A stretch of DNA of 64,000 bases from the NCBI GenBank assembly GCA_027943245.1, contig JANDJZ010000158.1, positions 1 through 64,000 of the forward strand, given 5' to 3'. Shown here one piece after another: positions 301 through 50,677 of this stretch; position 1 is the first letter of the stretch; each line of letters opens with the position of its first letter. Source of the DNA: Acanthamoeba sp. SK_2022b. Its lineage: Eukaryota; Discosea; Longamoebia; Acanthamoebidae. The translations under genes were made by a program, and so were the position numbers. Below the pieces are notes generated by a model. The model saw nothing but the letters and a program-made list of their open reading frames with translations. It was not told the origin of the DNA and did no database searches.

Positions 301-372
301 TCCGCTGTGGTGTAGTCGGTAACATTTATGGTTCTCACCCATGCGCCCCGGGTTCGATTCCCGGCAGCGGAA
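301..372 (+). tRNA. tRNA-Glu (CUC)
   Basis: Folds as a cloverleaf. The 7-bp acceptor stem pairs tccgctg with cagcgga. The D-arm has tggtgtagtcggta. The anticodon stem atgg/ccat encloses the seven-base loop ttctcac, giving anticodon CTC. The T-arm is ccggg-ttcgatt-cccgg. Discriminator base A. There is no intron. A TTTTT run at 378-382 is a suitable RNA polymerase III terminator. It decodes GAG. A second copy with anticodon TTC lies at 37870-37941 and differs mainly in the anticodon arm. Confidence 0.93.
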
Positions 373-12645: not shown

Positions 12646-14305
12646 CTATGTGTCATTGGTGCCTTGGTGCGCGACGGCTGGGGCAGAGAAAAAACTTGAT
12701 CGAAGGGCGGTGAAGCAGTAGGTGTCGGGCACCACACCCAGCTGGGCCATCTCGGCAAAGTAGCGCTTAGCATCCTCAGGCCGCCCTGCACTGCCCAGCG
12801 CGGCGATGATGGCGCTGAAGCAGGAGGCGCTGGGCACCATGCCCAGCTGGGCCATCTGGGCGAAGTAGCGCTCGGCATCGTCGACACGCCTGGCGGTGCC
12901 CAGCGCAGAGATGAGGGCGCTGAAGCAGTGGGTGTCGGGCACCACGCCCAGCTGTCCCATCTGGGCAAAGTAGCGCTCGGCATCGTCAGGCCGCCCTGCA
13001 CTGCCCAGCGCGGCGATGATGGCGCAGAAGCAGTAGGCGCTGGGCACCATGCCCAGCTGGGCCATCTGGGCGAAGTAGCGCTCGGCATCGTCGACACGCC
13101 TGGCGGTGCCCAGCGCAGCGATGAGGGCGCTGAAGCAGTGGGTGTTGGGCACCATGCCCAGCTGTCCCATCTGGGCAAAGTAGCGCTCGGCATCGTCAGG
13201 CCGGCCTGCACTGCCCAGCGCAGAGAGGATGGCGCTGAAGCAGTGAGCGTCGGGCACCACGCCCAGCTGGGCCATCTGGGCAAAGTAGCGCTCGGCAGCG
13301 TCGACACGCCCGGCGGTGATTAGCGCAGAGATGATGGCGCTGAAGCAGTGAGCGTCGGGCACCACGCCCAGCTGGGCCATCTGGGCGAAGTGGCGCTCGG
13401 CATCTTCGATCCGGCCTGTGGAACCCAGCGCATATATAACGGCGCTGAAGCAGTAGACATCGGGTGTGAGTCCTCTGCGCTCGATCTCGGCGAAGTAGTG
13501 GAGCGCTTTGTCCGGTTGGCGAGCCTTGCCCAGCACTGCGATCAGGGCACTAAACACGCCTGGTGCGTTGGGTGTCTGTGAGCCACCGCCACCGCCACCA
13601 CCAGGACGTCAAGGTTGAGCTGGCGCTCAGGGCAGATGAGGGGAGGCAGGAGGCGAAATCTTACGTGGCCAGCAAGCATCAGCTCGACCAGCTCAACGGC
13701 CGTCTCCCATCGGCGCGTGCGACCCAACAGAGGCACCACGGCGCTCACGGCCCACGGGTGAAGTTGGTGTGTGCGCTTGAGCGTGGCCACCAGCGAGTCC
13801 ACCTCGGCAATCGAGCCTGGTGAGCGTGGGCGTGCGCGTGCGCGTGCACGGTCATCTCGTGCCTAGAGCACGGCATGGGAGCAAACAAGCGCAGGAGGGG
13901 GGGGGGCTGGGAAGCGGAACCGGACTGCTTGATGCGCTGGGCCATCTGCTGCACCTGGCGCACTGAAGGCTTTTCCTCGGGGCTTTTCGCTGCTGCCGTC
14001 GTGGTGGCGGCGTCTGGCCGGTTGTTTGCTCGCGGAGTGGGAGAGGACCTGTTTCGGTGTTTCGGTTGCGCTGCTGGTGGTGCCGATGGCGGGGGTCTAG
14101 CCGCGCGGTTGGCAGGCGGCGCGTGGGGGGCGGTCGTGGTCGCTGTGGCAAATGGGGCGCTGAAGGGCTGGCGCACCCCAGTGTTGTTGGCCCGGTGGGA
14201 GCCGGTACCAAGGCAAGGATTATTTTGACATCGTGAGCGAAGAAGAAACGTATGCTGCAGCGTCCCTATCTGCCGCAGCGGTGCGGGCAGCACTATCCGC
14301 CTCAT
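12646..14305 (-). CDS. Pentatricopeptide repeat (PPR) protein, probably organellar
   Basis: PPR proteins bind single-stranded RNA, usually in mitochondria. Three exons join in phase: 14305-13921, 13816-13665, 13575-12646. The start is the first ATG giving an Arg-rich, acid-free N-terminus (MRRIVLPAPLRQ), consistent with a mitochondrial presequence; an upstream open stretch lacks ATG. A Pro/Ala-rich linker follows. After a helical segment (VDSLVATLKRTHQ) come eight 35-residue PPR motifs with consensus CFSAIIAALGSAGR and AERYFAQMAQLGVVPD, then a partial ninth. The repeats are nearly identical at DNA level, in 105-bp and partly 210-bp units, so they expanded recently. Positions 5 and 35 are mostly Ser/Asp. 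Its promoter side abuts the GT-rich satellite. Confidence 0.88.
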
Positions 14306-14372
14306 GTTTGTCCTCTTGGCGTGCGCAACGAAACAAAACTTTACGATGAGATAGGAAAATATCAAGGAAATT

Positions 14373-14445
14373 GTGCATAATGTGCATGGTGTGCATTATG
14401 TGCATTATGTGCGTGGTTGCATTATGTGCATAATGTGCGTGGGGT
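14373..14445 (+). repeat. TGTGCATTATG short tandem repeats
   Basis: Six or seven imperfect units of about 10-11 bp (tgtgcataa, tgtgcattatg), partly self-complementary around tgcataatgtgca. It lies directly upstream of the PPR gene and at the edge of the GT-rich satellite. Confidence 0.75.
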
Positions 14446-16262
14446 GTGTGTGTGTGCATGATGTGTGTGTGCAGGTGTGGACATTTGGGCTGGCGAGCTT
14501 TAAATGGTGGTGGTGGTTGGTCAGGTGGTGTTGTGGTGTTGTGGTGTTGTGGTGCATGTTGTGCTCTGGTGATGTGGTGCTGGTGTTGTGGTAATGGTGT
14601 TGTGGTGTTGTGGTGCAGGTGTCATGGATGTGCTGTGGTGTCATGGGGGTGTTGTGATGGTTATGATGGTGTGGTGATGTTGTGGTGGTGTTGTGGAGGT
14701 GCGGCAGTGGTTGTGGTGTGGTATTGTTGTGGTGTTGTTGTGTTGTAGTGGTGTTGTGGTGATGGTGTGGTGGTGTTGCAGTGATGTAGTGCTGTTGTGG
14801 TGTGGTTATTGTGGTGGTATTGTTGAGTTGTGGTGGTGATGGTGTGATGGTTTTGTGGTGGTGTGGTAGTGTTGTGGGTGTGGTGATGGTGTGTTGTGAT
14901 GTGGTGGTGTGTAGTGATGTGTTTTGATGGGGTGGTGATGTTGTGGTGTTGTGGTGTGAAGTTGTGGCGTTGGTGTGGTGTGATATGGTGTGGTGTGGTG
15001 TGGTGATGGTGGTGTTGTGGTGGTGGTGTGATATGGTGTGGTGTGGTGGTGGTGATGTGGTGTTGTGGTGTTGTGGTGTTGTGATGTTATGTTGTGGTGT
15101 GGTGTGGTGATGGTGGTGTTGTGGTGGTGGTGTGATATGGTGTGGTGTGGTGGTGGTGGTGTGGTGTTGTGGCATTGTTGTGGTGGTGTTGTAGTGTGGT
15201 GTAGTGGTGATGGTGTGATGTTGGTTGGTGGTGTGGTGGTGATGGGGTGATGATAAGTGCTGTTGGTGTTGTGGTGAGGTGAATGGTGTTGTGGTGATGG
15301 CGGTGTGGTGTTGTGGTGGTGGTGGTGTTGTGGTGATGGTGTAGTGTTGTTTTGGTGTTGTGGAGTTGTGGTTTTGTTGTGGATGTGTGGTGGTGTTGTG
15401 GCGTTGTGGTAGTGGTGGTGTAGTGGTGCTGTGGTGTTGTAGTGGTGTTGCGGTGTTGTGGTGTGGTTTTGTTGTGTGGTGATGGTGTGATGTTGGTTGG
15501 TGGTGTGGTGGTGATGGTGTGATGTTGTGGTGGTTTTGTAGTGGTGATGTTAGGTGTGGTGTTGTAGTGCTGTGGGCTGTGGTGGTGTGGTGTGGTCTTG
15601 TGGTTGTGTTGTGGTGTTGTTGTAGTGGTGGTTGTGGTGTTGTGGTGGTGCTGTTGTTGTGAGGTTGTGGTGGTGCAGTGGTGTTGTTGTGGTGTTGTGG
15701 TGGTGTGGGGGTGGTTGTTGTTGTGTTGTGGTAGTTGTTGTGGTCATCTTGGTTTAGTGGTTGTGGTGCTGTTGTGGTGATGTGGTGTTGTGATGGTGTT
15801 GCGGTGATTTTCTGGTGTAGTGGAAGTTGCGGTTGTGGTGTTGTTGTGCTGCTGTTTTGGTGCTGATGTGGTGTTGTGGTGATGGGTTGTGTTGGTGATA
15901 TTGTGTTGTGGTGGTGTTGTTGTGGTGATGTTGTGGTGGGTGGTGGTGCTGTTGTTGTGGTGGTTCTGTGGCGACATTGTGGTGTGGTGGTGGTGGTGTG
16001 GTGATGTGTTGGTGGTGTTGTGGTAGTGGTGCAGAGATGTAGTGGTGATGTGGTGATTTTGTGGTGATGTGGTTATGTTTGGTGGTGATGTGGTGTTGTG
16101 GTGTTGTTGTGGTGGTGTTATAGTGTTGTAGTAGTGATGGTGTGTTGTGGAAGTGTGGCGTTGGTGTTGATGTTGTAGTGATAGTGTGGTGAAGTTTAGG
16201 TAATGTTGGTGGTGTGTGATGATGGGTATGTTGTGGTGCTGGTGTGGAAGTTTAGGAGTTAT
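14446..16262 (+). repeat. GTGGTGTTGTGGTG-type satellite, about 1.8 kb
   Basis: The plus strand is almost entirely G and T with scattered A and rare C, made from GTGGTG, TTGTGG and GTGATG words. No fixed unit length is evident, though locally repeated blocks occur (for example around 14985-15060 and 15095-15170, which share gtggtgtgatatggtgtggtgtgg). Open frames here are artefacts of the simple sequence. It separates the PPR promoter from the copia remnant. Confidence 0.9.
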
Positions 16263-37695: not shown

Positions 37696-38259
37696 GCGGT
37701 GCAGCAAAAGCATGCCAACCTTGATGTTCCGCACAAAAACACCGACAGCCTTGCTGTGATGTGTAGTGTGTTTGTGATGGTTGGTGGCCACGGCACAGGT
37801 AAGGGGACCTGCACACAATGACCAACAGGACCAAGTTGATACTCTTACCCAGATGTATTAGAAACAAGATCCGCTGTGGTGTAGTCGGTAACATTTCTGG
37901 TTTTCACCCAGGCACCCCGGGTTCGATTCCCGGCAGCGGAGTATCTTTTTACCCTGGTAGGAAATGTTGTGTGCCATCATCGTTCTCCTTATTCGAGGGG
38001 TTGACTTTCACTGTTATATGCCCTGGCTCATGGTGACCATTGTGTGATGCACCATTGTGTCCCAGTGTGCCTTTCCCATTGTTCTCTGCATCAATGTGTG
38101 TGACAAAATCATCACATCCCAGAAAATAAACACTCAGTTGAGGGATCCCCTCACCAACAGACAATCATTGTGTGGGTAGTAGGGCTCAATCGGCCCCCAA
38201 AATTTAAGGTGGCGATCGTTAAGGCGGGAAAACGTTGTTTCGTACAAACGAAATCACCG
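37696..38259. other. Intergenic around tRNA-Glu(UUC)
   Basis: Apart from the tRNA I see no gene. The stretch holds the PNKP 3' flank and the 5' flank of the PHD-kinase gene. Confidence 0.4.
37870..37941 (+). tRNA. tRNA-Glu (UUC)
   Basis: Same backbone as the tRNA at 301-372. Anticodon stem ctgg/ccag encloses loop ttttcac, giving anticodon TTC. The acceptor stem tccgctg/cagcgga and T-arm ccggg-ttcgatt-cccgg are identical to the first copy. Discriminator base G. A TTTTT run at 37946-37950 can end transcription. It lies between PNKP and the PHD-kinase gene. Confidence 0.93.
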
Positions 38260-43048: not shown

Positions 43049-46000
43049 ATGCAAGCTGATGAAGTTAGTATTGATTCAAAGGAGCGCCCAATGTACGATT
43101 TGGCTTATTTCTTTGGCTCCGTGTTTGGAACGGTACTAACGACGGGAAGCTTTTTTATGCAGTCCAACGGCGAGGGACGCCCAGCAAGCTTATCTAACCC
43201 CCCAAGAGGTCATAGTCTCATTGCCCAGTGATAACGCGCAATCAACGGACGTTTTTGCAAGCCTGCTCGCTGCCTTACCGACGTCCCTAACCGCCCTATC
43301 CCTTGCCGGCGTACCTACCCCTTCTCAACCTATTTACGCCTCTGGAAGTACAAACAATGCAGGGTCGTTTTGTTGTGTGTTGGCAGAATGGACTGGATCA
43401 CTCCATGTTCGATCCTCTCAGCTCTTTCCTTCAAACACGACCGGCACTCACCGCACTCGACCTCAGCGGAAACCACTACTGCTTCCTGACCAAGGTCATT
43501 GGGATGACGAGAATTAAAGCCACCCTTCAGAAACTTTGCTTGCGTGAGGTACCATAACCCTTCCTATCCGCCGGGCATGGATATGCAGGCAGAACTTACA
43601 GCTGGGGTTCGCACCTTGTGTTGCTGCAGATCCGTCCTCAACTGCATGTGTCGGATATTGTCCGTGCATTGGCAAGAGCACGGAAGAGTTCGTCTCTCAC
43701 ACACCTCGACCTTCGCGAAAACGAGATTACAGGAGACACCCTTTTTTGCTTGGCAAGCCTGCTTAAGCGGTGCTCCAAACTCCAAGTGCTGCAGCTGAGC
43801 GGTCTAGCTGTCTCAAACGAAGTGGCTCCTTTGATGGCCCTCATTCTGAAGACGACCTCTTTAACGTCCCTTTGTGTCACGGTACCTTTCTCTCTTGTGC
43901 ACAGTCTCGCCTGCCTTTGCTGACGAATTACACTGGACAGACTGTATCGAGAGAGGACGCAACGCGTATAGTGGAGCAAGCAACGACGCTCAAATCACTG
44001 GAACTGCGCGGCGAGTGGATAGGATGCGGAGACGCTACATTGCTGGAATGCTTTAGCACTGCCCTTTCGGTATGTATCCATTTCTGTATCAGGCACCAGT
44101 GACCATCCGCTCATTCGTTTATGTCATTCAGCATCACCAAGTGGCGAAGGTGCAAGAGGTACTGAAGTTGGGGCTTGCTCTGCAGTTAAACACCTCGCTC
44201 ACCACCTTAGCCTTGAATGACTCCAAAGTTGAGCGCAAAATTAATCTGGTTCGTTTTGTCAGTCCTACTGATCAGCACTCAATCACAACACAGCGTAATT
44301 AACCAGTGCCCCTCTTTTGTACAGCTGGGATGCAGAGATGGCCTTGTGGCTTCTTTCCTGACCGTACCCTTGCCAAAAGCTAGATTTATTGACGCTCTCG
44401 GTAAGCACCGTATGTTTTTTAATCCGGTTGAGAGTGTTGCTGATCAGTCAGTATAACAAGGTTTGTCATCAAGTCAGCTCAGCCACATTGTTGATCAATG
44501 CAACACCAGATCAGAGTTGGTCATTCAGGCTGAGAGGCTCCCCGATCTGTGGAGCACATTCCGGATGATTAACCGCTTTGCGCATCAAGTCACTAAGGTG
44601 ATGGTGATCACTGGCAACACATTCAACAAATCCTCCGAGGTTTACAACCAAGCCATCTGTATGTCATCCACCCTCTTATCCTTGTTGGTATACTCACCTC
44701 ACTCATAAATTATCAAGGGAGGGGGTCGATTATGAAGCCACGGGGTTTGATGGTGTGGCAGACCCTCGAGAAGCTCAGCATCACAAACAATGCTGGGCTC
44801 GCTGCACCTCTTCTTGGCATCATATCACACATGCCCAACCTACAATATCTTGACCTCAGCAATAATGCTCTGGCAGATGTGAGCTATTTCTACCTGCCAA
44901 AGCTCACTCACCTTTGTCTGTCAGGCAACCAAATCCGGCAGCTGCCAGCAAACAATAACACAAAATACTCCTACATGTTGCCTGCCCTGACAACCCTTGA
45001 CCTGAGCAACAACATGATCACATATGTGAGTCCAGCAGCTCTCGAAGGTACCATCTTCTTTGTGATAGTCAAGGAGAATGTTTTCACTCCCCCAATCCCA
45101 GTGGTTACTGACCCACTGGCCTCAGGACTAGAACTTGTTACACTGCACCTTAACAACAATCTCATCCAAACTCTGTCAGCTGAGCCATGGTCTAATGGCC
45201 TCAGGCATAGTCTCACCCAACTGGATCTTTCATGCAATCTGGTACATTTCTCCCTTCCTGTTGTGCAAGCCTCACCACTCATAAAAACTTGGTCACGCAG
45301 TTCATGTTGGCAAAGGGGAAAGGCCTCCAGCCTGACTGTTTCCGCCCTTTGATCTCTCTCAAGAGGCTTCTCCTTTGGTACACCACCATATTTGCAATTC
45401 TCTTTGAGTCAAGAGCTGTGCCATTAACTGTCTCTTCCCATTCAGCACACATGGAAAGAAACTCGATAACTTGGGAATTAGTCCCCATTGTACCTATGGC
45501 TGTGTGTGCGTTCCCCAATGCAGCCGCACCCCCGTGAGATACCCTCAAGCGAATATCAAGTACACTGCATCCAACCCTCCCTCAAGATTTGAACTATGCT
45601 GACGTTTGTTGGTAATGCACTTATTGGCCAGTCTGTGTGGGCAGCCAGTGCATTATATGCCGCCGGGAGAAGAACTCGCAGTCGAGTTAGACATATCCTT
45701 AACGCGGATTCGTCTGCAAGCGCTGCGGCGCTGTGGAAGACTGGAGATATTGCACGCAAGCTATCTCCAACTCCATCAAGTCCAGATTCCCGAAGCAGTG
45801 CGCCCTTCTCACCGCCATTTGTGAATCAAGTACATCGCATGTTCTCATGAGATGCTTAACACTTTTTTGGGGCCTCGCGTATAGGTGGGGCGAATGCTCC
45901 GTGTCCTCGACCTCAGCTACAACCAACTCACCAAGATTACAGGCCGGTGGGATCTTCCTGTCCTGGAGATCCTCAACCTGAGCCACAACGGCCTCAAGGC

Positions 46001-49000
46001 GATCTACCCCGGCGCCTTCTCCTGTCTCGTTCGACTGCACCGACTCTTGCTCAGCCATAACGCCATTGGCGACAGCGAGGCCAGGGGATTCCGCCAGCTC
46101 TTCGCCACATGCACTGCCCTACAGGAGCTCGACCTCTCGCACAACCGGTTTTCATGGGTGGGCCGAAAAGTGATGGGCGAAGGACCGGTCAAGTCGCTGC
46201 GGAAGCTGGTGCTGGCCAACAACAGGATTACGGCGATTGAGGCCCACATGTGCGAAGGGCTTGAGCAGCTCACCGATCTCGATCTGAGCAATAACGGCCT
46301 TCTGTCGATCGACGCCAGCGCTCTGTTCCAGGTGGAAAGCTCTCTGGAGCGGCTCGATCTATCGTTCAACCTACTTGAAGAGCTTCCCGTTGGTAACCCC
46401 CCTGCGCACGTGCCCTCGTTGCCACCGTGCACATTCCTCACCTTGATCCTCGCGTGTTGTTATGCGGGGAATTGTGCAGGCTGGTCCAACATGATGACCA
46501 GTCTAAAAACGCTGGACCTGAGCTGGAATCGGTTTGATCGATTTCCTTTTGATGTGCTAGGAATGGTACGCTAAGTCACGCACCGCACGCGTTTGTGTGC
46601 GTTTCGCTTTTGCTGCCCATTGGCTCACAAAGAACAACACGTTGCAGTCAATCTTGACGAGACTCCGACTCGAGGGCAACCGTATTCCAACCTCACATAT
46701 TGGCCTAGCCTTAAGCAGCTGGCGGCATGCGGCAGATTACACGTTCAGCCTCACACCCCAGCTGGTCCAAGGGAAGCAGATTCACAAAGGCCTTATTGCG
46801 TTGTGTCGAGGCAAGACCGAGTACTTGAAGACTTCGGGAGCACTTCAAATGCCTTGTGAGGTCGCTGTGCCCTTGCCTCATATCTCATCGCGTGCGTGTG
46901 GTGTCTTGCCACTGACGGTACCTCCTGAGCCTTGATTATCCTTTGATGCGCAGCTTCTGACGCCCTTCATCTTTATTCACGTGGGTCCAGGACCAACCGA
47001 ACAGCAGCATAGAGGACGCAGTCTTCGACATTTGGAAAGCATCCTGCTACTTGACCTTCTCGCGCACAATCACATATGTCCTTACCAACAGTAACGGTCG
47101 CTTCAACCGCAATGCTAAAGAGTACTTCATCCGCTCGCCATGGGAGAAACATCTCACAGCAGGCCAGGACACAGCTGGTACCCCTTGCTACGTGTGTGCA
47201 TGCTCCCTTGCGCATTCCGTAGCTATTTTGCGAACTGGTCCCCTCCTGCTCACCCTTTCCGTATGTCTTTGAAATGGCCACCATGGCATGGTGGCTGATG
47301 CCAGATCCGCTGTGGAAGATGCTCGATGCTGAACTCGCGGACATTGTTGGAATGGACAAGATCAAGGAGAAGCTCAGGGCTATCGCCTGCGTTCTCAGCG
47401 TGCACTACGATCAGCGAACCTCCTCAGGCGATACCCAGCAAGCTCGCAACCCGCCGCACAAGATGCATATCCTGCTGCAGGGCAACCCCGGCACCGGCAA
47501 GACCACAATTGCGCGCCTGATGGGCAAGATCTTCTTTCACCTGAATATCACCCGTATGCGCCCGCCCACCCTCTGTGTGCATCACCACTCTCCTGTTGTG
47601 TGACTGATTATAAACCGATTGCATGCTGGTGAAGAGCGCGAGAATGTGGTGGAGGTGCAGGCGCCGCAGCTTGTATCCAGCTATGTGAACGGTACTGCCG
47701 AGAAGACCAAGAAGGAGATCGATGCAGCACGCGGCGGAGTGCTCTTCATCGACGAAGCCTACCGTCTATCGCCAACTGCCGGATCCCAACACGACCACGG
47801 CAGAGAGTGTGCCCCCCGCTAGACCGAGTGCTTCCCTTCGTGAACAAACTAAGTCTGCTTTTTTTGTACCGTGACATACAATCTCCTCATGGCGGTCAGG
47901 GCCATTGACACGATCATGGAGCACATGAGCGGCGACAACAGCAACGCGGAAAGCGCGGCCAACGTGACGTTCATCTTTGCTGGCTACAAATCAGAAATGG
48001 CCAAGTTCAAGGTTTCCGCCACCTCTTGCCTTCTGCTCCTGTCGCCGCGGCCCATTGAAGGTCATGCCGGCACCAAAACGTTTGCATCAGAAAACGAACC
48101 CAGGAATGTTCAGCCGCATCGCCTACACCTTTGATCTGCCGGACTACAGCCCCTTGGAGCTGGCCCTCATCTTCGAAAATTACCTCGATCGGCACGGTTG
48201 GTCGATGAGCAAGCCGTCGAGCCGTGCAGAGGAGGATGCGCAAAATGCGAATATTGCCGAGGTATTCGCGCAGGTGCCCCTTACCATGCGCAAGCATATC
48301 AACGGTGCTCCCTCTCTACTTTCTGAACCTTTGTGGTAGCAAGTGTAGGCAGCAAGTGCTGACTCTCGCTCTCTGTGACGACGCAGGGCGGCTCGTTGGT
48401 CATCTCTTTCGTGTGGCGCAAGAATGGCAAGCCCACCGCTGGACAGAGGAAAGGTCCATACGCCTTTCTTTGTTCTTACTTCTTACAAAAGCGATACGGA
48501 CGTGGAGGTGCTAATGTGTAACTATCGACTAGGGCCTGGCATCAGAGAGAGTGCAAAGGAAAAGGGATGTGTCAGAAATGCGAAAGCGTCACGGATGGTC
48601 GGCGGGCGTTTACGCTGGAAGATCTGCAGCAGGGCATGAATGAATGGCTCGAGATGAACGAGGCAGACATCGCCGGCGACAGCAAGGAGATAGAAGAGGA
48701 TGCGCGAGAAGAAAAGGAACGAATGAGAAAAGAAGAGAAGGGCAAGGAGAAGGCATCGCCGGTGTCCCGCGGCAACACACCGCCCGGCCAATTATTGCGG
48801 CGCAAGCGTACCCGAGGCGATGAGCCAGTGTCCCAGCCCTCTTCCTCTTCATCATCGGTGCTGCACGCTGGCCCTGCCAAGCGACAGAGGGTGGAGGACC
48901 AACATGAGGTCCATGGCTTGGGTGACAACCTCGAGCAAAGCAGCACCGAGCAGAGCGAAGAGGTATCGACCTCGAAGCAGGGGTGGTGGCGGCGCTTCTT

Positions 49001-49013
49001 ACCCTTTTCGTAG
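43049..49013 (+). CDS. Leucine-rich-repeat protein with CbbX/SpoVK-type AAA ATPase
   Basis: Start ATG 43049; exon 1 (43049-43092) joins in phase to a frame leading into repeats. The N-terminal LRRs are ribonuclease-inhibitor-like (SSLTHLDLRENEITGD; 43620-44050). Canonical LRRs follow at 44760-45240 and 45890-46690 (LQYLDLSNNAL, LRVLDLSYNQL, LTDLDLSNNGL). An unknown spacer (VFDIWKASCYLTFSRTI) leads by a phase-1 intron into the AAA domain from 47304: DIVGMDKIKEKL, Walker A GNPGTGKTT, Walker B GGVLFIDEAYRL, FIFAGYKSEM, and NPGMFSRI with the putative Arg finger. After the lid comes a charged Lys/Glu-rich tail ending GWWRRFLPFS. Best reading is one gene of about 1,400-1,500 residues; the LRR-AAA join near 46860-46992 is the weakest point. 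Confidence 0.75.
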
Positions 49014-49176
49014 GATGGCGGATGTCATCATCCTTCATAAACATAATGTTGCAGTAGCATAATCTGTTCAGTTGGCCCACTGCAGCCAACGTCTTCTCCA
49101 TGGTGTCTTCTCAACTATGTCAGAAATCTCCTCCGTTCGCTTTAAGGCTGACATGGCATTTAAAAAACCAACACGG

Positions 49177-50677
49177 CTACCTCCTGTGGAGGATAAGGTT
49201 GGCGTTGGGAACGAGGTCGAGCTCCGCCAGGGTGCGATCGAGGTCAGCAGCGCCATAGGTCTTGCGCGGGTAGGGCGTCATCAGCTCGAAGCCCGCGTGC
49301 CTGGAAGTTTAGGCGCGCCACACAGCATGAGTCGTGTCAACGCCCCCCACGCAAATGTAATTCGCCAACGCACGTGCGGAGGAAGACAACTACTTACCCG
49401 TCAGTCCTATTTCTAGTGATGAAGTCGTGCACCGTCCTCAGGCTGTCGCCACCGGCGAAGTCGTGCTTGAGCGTGGAACCGTCGGTGAGCCTGCGAGCGC
49501 AAAGGGGTCAACCACAGCGCCGATGTGGGGGGATGGCTGCCATCCTGCGTGCGTACCTGATGGCCAGCGTGGTCTTGGGACCGCCGCCAGCGCCGGGAGC
49601 CTGCGAAGGCGTGGCGGTGGAGGTGGTGGTCGACTCTTCCTCATCGCCGAGCGACGGGTTCTGGAACACCCAGTCCACGACGCTCTCGAGGTCGGTCGTC
49701 CCGGTGGCCTCGATGCCCGCAAGGGCGACCCTGCGCGAGAAGCCCATTTCCATCACCGACTGCACCACGGCCTCCACGTCCTTGCCGCTCGCCACTGGAG
49801 CCGCTGCCGCCGGCGTCGCAGCGGCCGAGGCACCATCGCCGCCGCCCAGTCGATAGCCCGAGCCGCCAAAGCTCCCGCCAGATGCGCCGTCGGCACTCGA
49901 CAGGGTGGAGGTGGCGCCGTGGCGCTTGATGAGCTCCTGCAGCCGGTTGGGATCTGCGCCGCGGAGCTCGTCCACCTTGCGCCCGCCCACGTAGAAGTGG
50001 AACGTGGGCATGGCGCTCACCCCGCACTCCTGCGCCACGTCGGGCACCTGGTCCACGTCCACCTGCCGACGGACGCCAATCCAACTCGGTCAGTCTACAT
50101 CGAATCACGCAACAAAATAGAGAGAGAGAGAGAGAGAAAAGGCGAGAACGCTATCATCGTGTAGTGGTTACCTCCAGGAAGCGAACGTTGGGATAGCTGG
50201 TGCTGAGCTCGGCATAGATTGGGGCCATCCTCTGCAGCACGCAGGGATTGTGTGAGGCAGGCCAAGAGGATGAGGAGGCGGGGGAGGAGATACCTGGCAC
50301 GGTCCGCACCACGTAGCGGAGAAGTCGACGACGACGAGACCGCGTGGGTGGGCGCTGAGCTCGGCCTTGAACTCCTGCTGGCTTCCTATCGTCTTGACCC
50401 GGCCGTGGCCGCCCCCGCTCCGACCGCGTCCGCCGCCAAGACCACCTAGCAGAGCCCCTAGGTCGAAGGGAAAGCCTCCTCCACCGCCACCACCTCCAGG
50501 AGGCCCTCCCGGAGGAGGCCCGTGGCTGCCGCCGCCAGGGGGTCCACCGCCACCTGTAGATTGCACGCGCCATCAAAGATTAGGAATTCACGAGAGCGCT
50601 GATGGGTTTGATTTGTGCTTTTAAATCCATTGCAAATCCACACCTTTCAGATCGTTCAGACTGCGCACGTTAGACAT
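49177..50677 (-). CDS. Thioredoxin-UBA-UBX protein
   Basis: Domains in order. A short N-terminus (MSNVRSLNDLK) is followed by a Gly/Pro-rich segment. A thioredoxin fold has the active site ATWCGPC, cis-Pro in SAMPTFHFY, and length near 105 residues. A flexible Gly/Ala linker leads to a UBA domain (VEAVVQSVMEMGFSRRVAL, VVDWVFQNP) and a C-terminal UBX domain (TTLAIRLTDGSTL, FELMTPYPRKTYG, LVPNANLIL). UBX domains dock on p97/Cdc48 and UBA domains bind ubiquitin, so a redox-active Cdc48 cofactor is a fair inference. Both active-site Cys are present. Last exon starts with HAGFELM and stops at 49177. Head to head with the lipase gene, 375 bp between start codons. Confidence 0.88.

What the first reader, a model, noticed from the sequence alone, without database searches (positions are those of the whole stretch)
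43049..49013. LRR protein ending in a CbbX-type AAA ATPase: an NLR-like layout with a different motor
Leucine-rich repeats of two kinds precede an AAA domain with the CbbX/SpoVK signatures GNPGTGKTT, GGVLFIDEAYRL, FAGYKSEM and NPGMFSRI. NLR immune sensors pair LRRs with NACHT or NB-ARC; here the ATPase is of a bacterial/plastid-type AAA family and sits C-terminal. The spacer and charged tail are unknown. If the join is right, this is a plausible intracellular sensor or remodelling machine not described in standard lists.
Basis: partly seen in the sequence, partly recalled or inferred. Interest (0 to 1): 0.78.

Follow-up and report, generated by a model that had tools for sequence, protein, structure and literature searches.

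The report
Leucine-rich repeats fused to CbbX-type motor
An amoeba gene appears to encode one large protein that joins a recognition module (leucine-rich repeats) to a ring-forming ATP-driven remodelling motor of a kind best known from bacteria, more likely a chaperone for a chosen partner than an immune receptor of the NLR type.

Summary
A 21-exon model, ATG 43049 to TAG 49013, reads through without a stop (1356 aa): leucine-rich repeats (15 strict matches against 0.42 in shuffles), a spacer, one AAA domain, a tail with NLS-like motifs. The LRR-AAA join needs introns 46918-46990 and 47178-47304. A home-made gene finder with both held out recovered both in 12 of 12 runs; in another set, 2 of 6 runs (trained on the AAA half only) split the gene. 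Acceptor 47304 is poor. There is no RNA, so the fusion is predicted (about 85%), not proven. The AAA domain is of the SpoVK-CbbX-EccA clade with its main ATPase residues kept; it is not NACHT or NB-ARC, and the order is the reverse of an NLR. A preprint describes this clade as dedicated chaperones with varied client-recruiting N-terminal domains; LRR is not named in the passages read. Best reading: an LRR-targeted AAA+ chaperone, possibly nuclear, single copy in an Acanthamoeba-like genome. No orthologue was found, but the collections may lack amoebae. New variant of a known kind.

The parts
43049..49013 (+). Whole predicted gene, 21 exons, 1356 aa: LRR - spacer - CbbX-type AAA - charged tail
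   Evidence: open, phase-consistent, introns GT-AG
43049..44400 (+). Exons 1-7: N-terminal part with isolated LRR matches. Exon 1 = 43049-43092
44461..46565 (+). Exons 8-13: LRR ladder. Boundaries around 44400-45650 uncertain; 45242-45644 may be one 403-bp intron or hold an extra exon 45301-45489
   Evidence: Pfam LRR_8/LRR_4; spacing; alternative introns
46648..46917 (+). Exon 14: last LRR and first part of the spacer; holds an in-frame ATG at 46849
   Evidence: open in model frame only; frame score -4.6 against -43.4 and -23.2; 1.25% of 2000 shuffles as good
46918..46990 (+). Join intron 1 (73 bp, GTACCT..GTCCAG)
   Evidence: held-out donor 9.9 bits (top 0.05% of 4173 GT), acceptor 7.2 (top 2.5% of 3770 AG)
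46991..47177 (+). Exon 15: spacer, no recognised domain, no ATG in its frame
   Evidence: frame open 46961-47272 without Met; frame score 5.1 against -22.5 and -15.3; 1.95% of 2000 shuffles as good; 0 Pfam families
47178..47304 (+). Join intron 2 (127 bp, GTACCC..TGCCAG); weakest acceptor of the model
   Evidence: donor 7.5 bits (top 1.05% of GT), acceptor -1.0 (72% of window AGs do as well); recovered when held out
47305..48668 (+). Exons 16-20 and start of 21: AAA domain, residues 926-1242. Walker A, pore-loop Tyr1025, Walker B, GY 1094-1095, Asn1106, Arg1112, NGR 1174-1176
   Evidence: PDB CbbX 3zuh 3.3e-32, 3syk 3.9e-32, EccA1 9lur 1.9e-26; NCBIfam TIGR02881/02880/03922; residue counts
48669..49013 (+). 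C-terminal tail, 114 aa, with NLS-like RRKR (1286) and PAKRQRVE (1311)
   Evidence: motif scan; 3 weak Pfam matches, none over its cut-off
47274..47285 (+). Rival start codons (ATG 47274, ATG 47283, the latter in GCCACCATGG) for a separate AAA gene
   Evidence: context printed

Best explanation
One gene encodes an LRR-targeted AAA+ remodelling chaperone. Shown here: the sequence can encode an LRR array, a spacer without known relatives, an AAA domain of the SpoVK-CbbX-EccA clade with its main ATPase residues kept, and a charged tail with NLS-like motifs. Inferred: the AAA domains assemble into a hexameric ring that hydrolyses ATP; the LRRs, displayed around the ring, bind one dedicated client; the pore-loop tyrosine pulls a tail of that client, as CbbX does with the Rubisco large subunit, to remodel or activate it rather than degrade it; the tail sends the protein to the nucleus.
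For: Join: both introns found in 12 of 12 runs with the joins held out, and in 4 of 6 runs (2 of those 4 had the joins in the training set). Donor 46918 is the best GT and acceptor 46990 the best AG of 46600-47640. Exon 15's frame has no ATG and it looks coding. Fusion 26.4 against 9.3 bits for stop 46933 plus ATG 47274. AAA: over 367 non-redundant domains cut from the 240 listed homologues, D1048 and E1049 367, G1094 and Y1095 367, N1106 362, R1112 367, R1176 327, Y1025 285 (Walker A is invariant there by construction, because the cut used it). The clade's defining signatures, its description as dedicated chaperones and its substrate-recruiting N-terminal domains come from PMC10659427 (abstract and passages). 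In 6 of 7 relatives scanned, another domain precedes the AAA: TPR (P0165), Sel1 (P0185), beta-helix (P0181, P0240), FHA (P0153), BspA-type LRR (P0219); in the seventh, P0132, a trypsin-like domain follows it.
Against: No RNA or protein evidence. Acceptor 47304 is poor: -1.0 bits, as good as 72% of all AGs in the window. Training on the AAA half only splits the gene, AAA starting at ATG 47274 (2 of 6 runs). With an independent codon table the LRR and spacer exons score no better per codon than the best frames of introns; only the contrast with their own other frames is clear, in 20 of 21 exons. Exon 14's own score is negative. No relative of the spacer was found. PF17866 (AAA_lid_6) was not among the 25 of 31 Pfam families shown. 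Some usually conserved positions differ: N1027 (G in 347 of 367), I1173 (G in 308), G1179 (R in 270), H1180 (N in 211). Hexamer, client and localisation are inferred; the NLS patterns are recalled.
Confidence: 0.62

Rival explanations
1. Two adjacent genes: an LRR protein ending at TGA 46933 and a stand-alone CbbX-like AAA protein starting at ATG 47274 or 47283.
For: ATGs open into the AAA, one in a GCCACCATGG context; weak acceptor 47304; AAA-half training gives this start (2 of 6 runs).
Against: 17 bits worse than the fusion. It ignores the strong intron 46918-46990 and leaves exon 46991-47177 unexplained. The better-scoring two-gene parses end the LRR gene less than 50 bases before ATG 47274 and still score 5 to 9 bits below the fusion in 5 of 5 settings.
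Confidence: 0.14
2. The fusion is real and is an intracellular immune sensor: LRRs detect microbial or viral ligands and the AAA ring is the signalling platform, a functional analogue of an NLR with a different motor.
For: LRR plus nucleotide-driven ring; amoebae meet many microbes. The A. castellanii genome paper names an NB-ARC-TPR homologue and an LRR-ROCO GTPase in its section on microbial recognition (PMC4053784, passages). In the genome searched here NB-ARC gave 0 matches and NACHT 3, one over its cut-off, none at this locus.
Against: No effector domain seen; reversed order; not a STAND ATPase; single copy, whereas sensor families often expand (recalled). NLS-like tail. PADLOC matches of the AAA part are weak (9 families, best 1.9e-7, IetA).
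Confidence: 0.13
3. The fusion is transcribed but is a recent, lineage-private join without a joint function.
For: No relative of the spacer found; single copy.
Against: The model stays open over 21 exons and the main ATPase residues are kept.
Confidence: 0.1

Closest known systems
CbbX, red-type Rubisco activase (PDB 3zuh, 3syk/3syl)
   Same: Walker A/B, pore-loop Tyr, GY, NPG..SR (alignment)
   Different: No LRR in the solved chains (289 and 309 residues); 150.8 bits on TIGR02880 against a cut-off of 459.25
SpoVK, sporulation chaperone
   Same: Best NCBIfam match (177.4 bits); dedicated chaperone whose N-terminal domain binds the client (PMC10659427, passages)
   Different: Below the SpoVK cut-off of 422.95; SpoVK's N-terminal domain is short (PMC10659427)
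EccA of type VII secretion (9lur)
   Same: Same AAA clade; TPR and beta-helix parts at the N-terminus (PMC10659427)
   Different: LRR here; eukaryotic gene with introns; 140.5 bits against a cut-off of 466.65
Bacterial repeat + CbbX-like proteins, e.g. P0165 (TPR), P0185 (Sel1), P0240 (beta-helix), P0219 (BspA-type LRR)
   Same: Repeat or ligand-binding part before the AAA
   Different: These four have two AAA stretches each. None of the 240 listed homologues has more than 2 strict LRR matches, against 15 here
Plant ankyrin-repeat + CbbX-like ATPases (recalled, from no call)
   Same: Eukaryotic repeat-AAA fusion
   Different: Ankyrin instead of LRR; not checked here
NLR receptors
   Same: LRR plus ATPase in one chain
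   Different: ATPase is classical AAA, not NACHT/NB-ARC; order reversed; no effector domain seen

Membership tests
SpoVK-CbbX-EccA clade of AAA (as defined in PMC10659427) | GY signature in sensor-1 | tested here: met
   G1094 Y1095; 367 of 367 domains each
[quoted passage not shown]
   N1106 (362 of 367), 6 residues before R1112 (367 of 367). The paper says 4 residues; the residue at +4 (F1110) is variable in the set, so I take R1112 as the finger
SpoVK-CbbX-EccA clade of AAA (as defined in PMC10659427) | second arginine finger (sensor-2) | tested here: met
   R1176 in NGR; R in 327 of 367. That this R is sensor-2 is my assignment
SpoVK / CbbX / EccA proper | score over the NCBIfam equivalog cut-off | tested here: not met
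   177.4 vs 422.95; 150.8 vs 459.25; 140.5 vs 466.65 bits
SpoVK-CbbX-EccA clade of AAA (as defined in PMC10659427) | AAA_lid_6 (PF17866), found in all 7 relatives scanned; not one of the paper's criteria | tested here: inconclusive
   not among the 25 of 31 families shown; but TIGR02881 aligns over 2-246 of 261
NLR | NACHT or NB-ARC ATPase | tested here: not met
   absent from the families shown (25 of 26; 25 of 31)
NLR | ATPase N-terminal to the LRRs | tested here: not met
   last LRR match at residue 776, AAA from 926
NLR | ligand-triggered oligomerisation and effector output | not testable with these tools
   needs biochemistry; no effector domain seen
AAA+ remodelling ATPase | ATP hydrolysis by a hexamer | not testable with these tools

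The most novel reading that the evidence does not exclude
A eukaryotic LRR-guided AAA+ remodeller, built by capturing a bacterial-type CbbX/SpoVK motor and giving it LRRs as the client- or ligand-recognising part, acts in the nucleus as a ligand-gated machine. It would be a sensor-ATPase class parallel to NLRs but working by threading clients, not by scaffolding.
Probability: 0.12. Interest if true: 0.8.

Novelty: new variant of a known kind. Interest (0 to 1): 0.45.

Why it matters
The SpoVK-CbbX-EccA clade is described as poorly defined and understudied until lately, its N-terminal domains as likely client recruiters, and its eukaryotic members as poorly characterized (PMC10659427, passages). 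An LRR array is a versatile binding module, so an LRR-CbbX protein in a culturable amoeba would give a testable eukaryotic case: pull down the client with the LRR part and a Walker-B trap. It would also show that LRR plus nucleotide motor can be assembled without STAND ATPases.

Tried and rejected
Rejected: NLR membership (wrong ATPase, wrong order). Rejected as likely, not excluded: two genes. An arginine-finger defect was suspected because NPGMFSRI lacks the Arg at +4 of CbbX; dropped because that column is variable while Arg at +6 is invariant. Viral relatives: viral-contig scan, 36 pattern stretches, 0 relatives. Prokaryote contigs: 98 stretches, 1 distant relative (23% identity). Poly(A)-like motifs: none of 5 in 46900-47300, but also none in 49014-49200 just after the gene, so uninformative. 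Paper searches, of which I saw listings and abstract starts only: LRR + CbbX + AAA (1 paper), Acanthamoeba + LRR + AAA ATPase, CbxX + AAA + eukaryot, CbbX + ankyrin + AAA, AAA-type ATPase / ankyrin repeat / CbbX-like, any two (none with CbbX-like), LRR + AAA ATPase + domain architecture + amoeba: no such fusion apparent; open-licence papers only. Protein searches returned many multi-AAA proteins, with bacterial names where names were given (120 shown of 4796 and of 5254); these outrank single-AAA proteins, so eukaryotic relatives may be hidden or absent from the collection.

Not done: structure prediction.
Full report
What is there. The region 43049-49013 on the + strand holds a 21-exon model without internal stops: 1356 residues, introns GT-AG, phases matched. 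Pfam, run on a first model that differs only in exon 1, finds LRRs (LRR_8 3.2e-48 and others) and one AAA domain (8.3e-17). A strict LRR pattern matches 15 times in residues 1-863; 2000 residue shuffles gave a mean of 0.42 and a maximum of 4. Two matches are early (57, 141); 13 lie at 417-776 with spacings of 21-28 and one gap of 91.

Is it one gene? Evidence for. (a) With the join introns held out of training, donor 46918 scores 9.9 bits (top 0.05% of 4173 GT), acceptor 46990 7.2 (top 2.5% of 3770 AG) and donor 47178 7.5 (top 1.05% of GT). (b) Exon 15 is open from 46961 to 47272 without a Met, so if it is coding it must be joined upstream. Exons 14 and 15 are open only in the model frame, and 1.25% and 1.95% of 2000 dinucleotide shuffles do as well. 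(c) A small gene finder recovered both join introns in 12 of 12 runs with the joins held out: four training sets (codons from independent loci, from the gene without the spacer, or mixed) times three minimum gaps. (d) Scored directly, the fusion has 26.4 bits and the two-gene reading with stop 46933 and ATG 47274 has 9.3.

Evidence against. Acceptor 47304 scores -1.0 bits, the lowest of the 20, and 72% of the window's AGs do as well; another held-out acceptor, 46647, has 0.3. In an earlier set of 6 runs the 2 trained on the AAA half only broke the gene and began the AAA at ATG 47274; the 2 trained on the LRR half and the 2 trained on everything (joins included) kept it whole across the join. 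Exon 14's score is negative (-4.6 bits), though far above its other frames. Priors are mine and the training introns few (5 to 20). Exons at 44400-45650 and near 48305-48386 differ between runs. A different second junction, 47261-47318, is also in phase by hand count (sites listed, donor 7.0 bits) and would keep the fusion; it was not scored as a whole. An AAA-only product from ATG 46849 in exon 14 is possible and was not tested.

What the motor is. PDB relatives are CbbX (3.3e-32) and EccA1 (1.9e-26), then Cdc48/AFG2-like ATPases from 1.3e-10. NCBIfam gives SpoVK 177.4, CbbX 150.8, EccA 140.5 bits, all far below the equivalog cut-offs. I cut 575 domains from the 240 listed homologues at the P-loop pattern (so Walker A is invariant by construction) and kept 367 after a redundancy filter. 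Asp-Glu of Walker B, GY and Arg1112 are invariant; Asn1106 362, Arg1176 327; the pore-loop Tyr is Y in 285 and F in 40. Less usual here: N1027 (G in 347), I1173 (G in 308), G1179 (R in 270), H1180 (N in 211). So the domain is probably an active ATPase, with drift in the pore loop and the lid. A His/Cys stretch (HQRECKGKGMCQKC, about residue 1200) follows the lid and has no explanation.

What it is known as. A preprint on SpoVK (PMC10659427; abstract, outline and passages seen) unites SpoVK, CbbX, EccA and some eukaryotic proteins in one clade. It describes characterised members as chaperones for a dedicated target, says the N-terminal domains vary (TPR, beta-helix, beta-prism, SF-1 RNA helicase in eukaryotes) and may recruit the substrate, and reports no peptidase associations. 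LRR is not in the passages seen; its Figure 3A could not be seen. I scanned 7 of the 240 homologues with Pfam, picked for their precomputed domains: in six another domain precedes the AAA (TPR, Sel1, beta-helix twice, FHA, BspA-type LRR), in one a trypsin-like domain follows it. So a recognition part before this motor is a known theme. A long canonical LRR array was not seen in the 240: two proteins have 2 strict matches, the rest fewer.

Where it lives. The host genome G000 has 44.9 Mb in 1129 contigs. With the introns, an Acanthamoeba or close kin is likely; the species is not settled. The gene is single copy as far as the search sees: of 9 matches to the AAA part 7 are this locus, the other 2 weak (E 0.0016 and 0.0045); of 48 matches to the LRR part (661 residues given) 10 are this locus, the other 38 score at most 38.2 bits. 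TIGR02881 gave 4 matches, 2 here and 2 weaker elsewhere (7.5e-5, 1.0e-4), none over its cut-off. NB-ARC gave 0 matches, NACHT 3, one over its cut-off, none here. The A. castellanii genome paper reports compact intron-rich genes, 6.2 introns per gene on average, and laterally acquired genes with introns (PMC4053784, passages). A bacterial origin of the AAA part is plausible but untested: no tree was made and no eukaryotic relatives were at hand.

How it likely works. Ring ATPase (inferred from residues), LRR client binding (inferred from the fold family and the clade's habit), threading by the pore Tyr (inferred from CbbX), nuclear location (inferred from RRKR and PAKRQRVE, recalled NLS patterns). 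An NLR-like immune sensor is possible but has no direct support.

Noticed in passing
window 14372-16150: A G+T-rich, strand-asymmetric tandem array of about 1.6 kb (units such as TGTGGTGGTGT and GTGGTGTT); at 14001-16000 GC skew is 0.74 and AT skew -0.62.
   Followed up: partly
window 12704-13464: Tandem array of a 105/210-bp unit, 7.2 copies of 105 bp at 82% matches; the unit length suggests a 35-residue (PPR-like) coding repeat, not checked.
   Followed up: no
window 49508-50572, minus strand: Downstream neighbour: two open frames with parts of a thioredoxin domain, one of them followed by a UBA-like domain.
   Followed up: partly
window 301-372 and 37870-37941, plus strand: Two tRNA-Glu genes (anticodons CTC and TTC) in one window.
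   Followed up: no
window 48533-48600, residues 1198-1215: His/Cys cluster HQRECKGKGMCQKC after the AAA lid, a possible small metal site or insertion.
   Followed up: no
P0219 (673 aa): BspA-type LRR stretch at the start (residues 2-51) before two CbbX-type AAA stretches; may be truncated at its start.
   Followed up: partly
G000:C409:141476-141970: A NACHT match over its cut-off (40.8 bits) in a 2086-codon open frame: a candidate NACHT protein in this genome.
   Followed up: no
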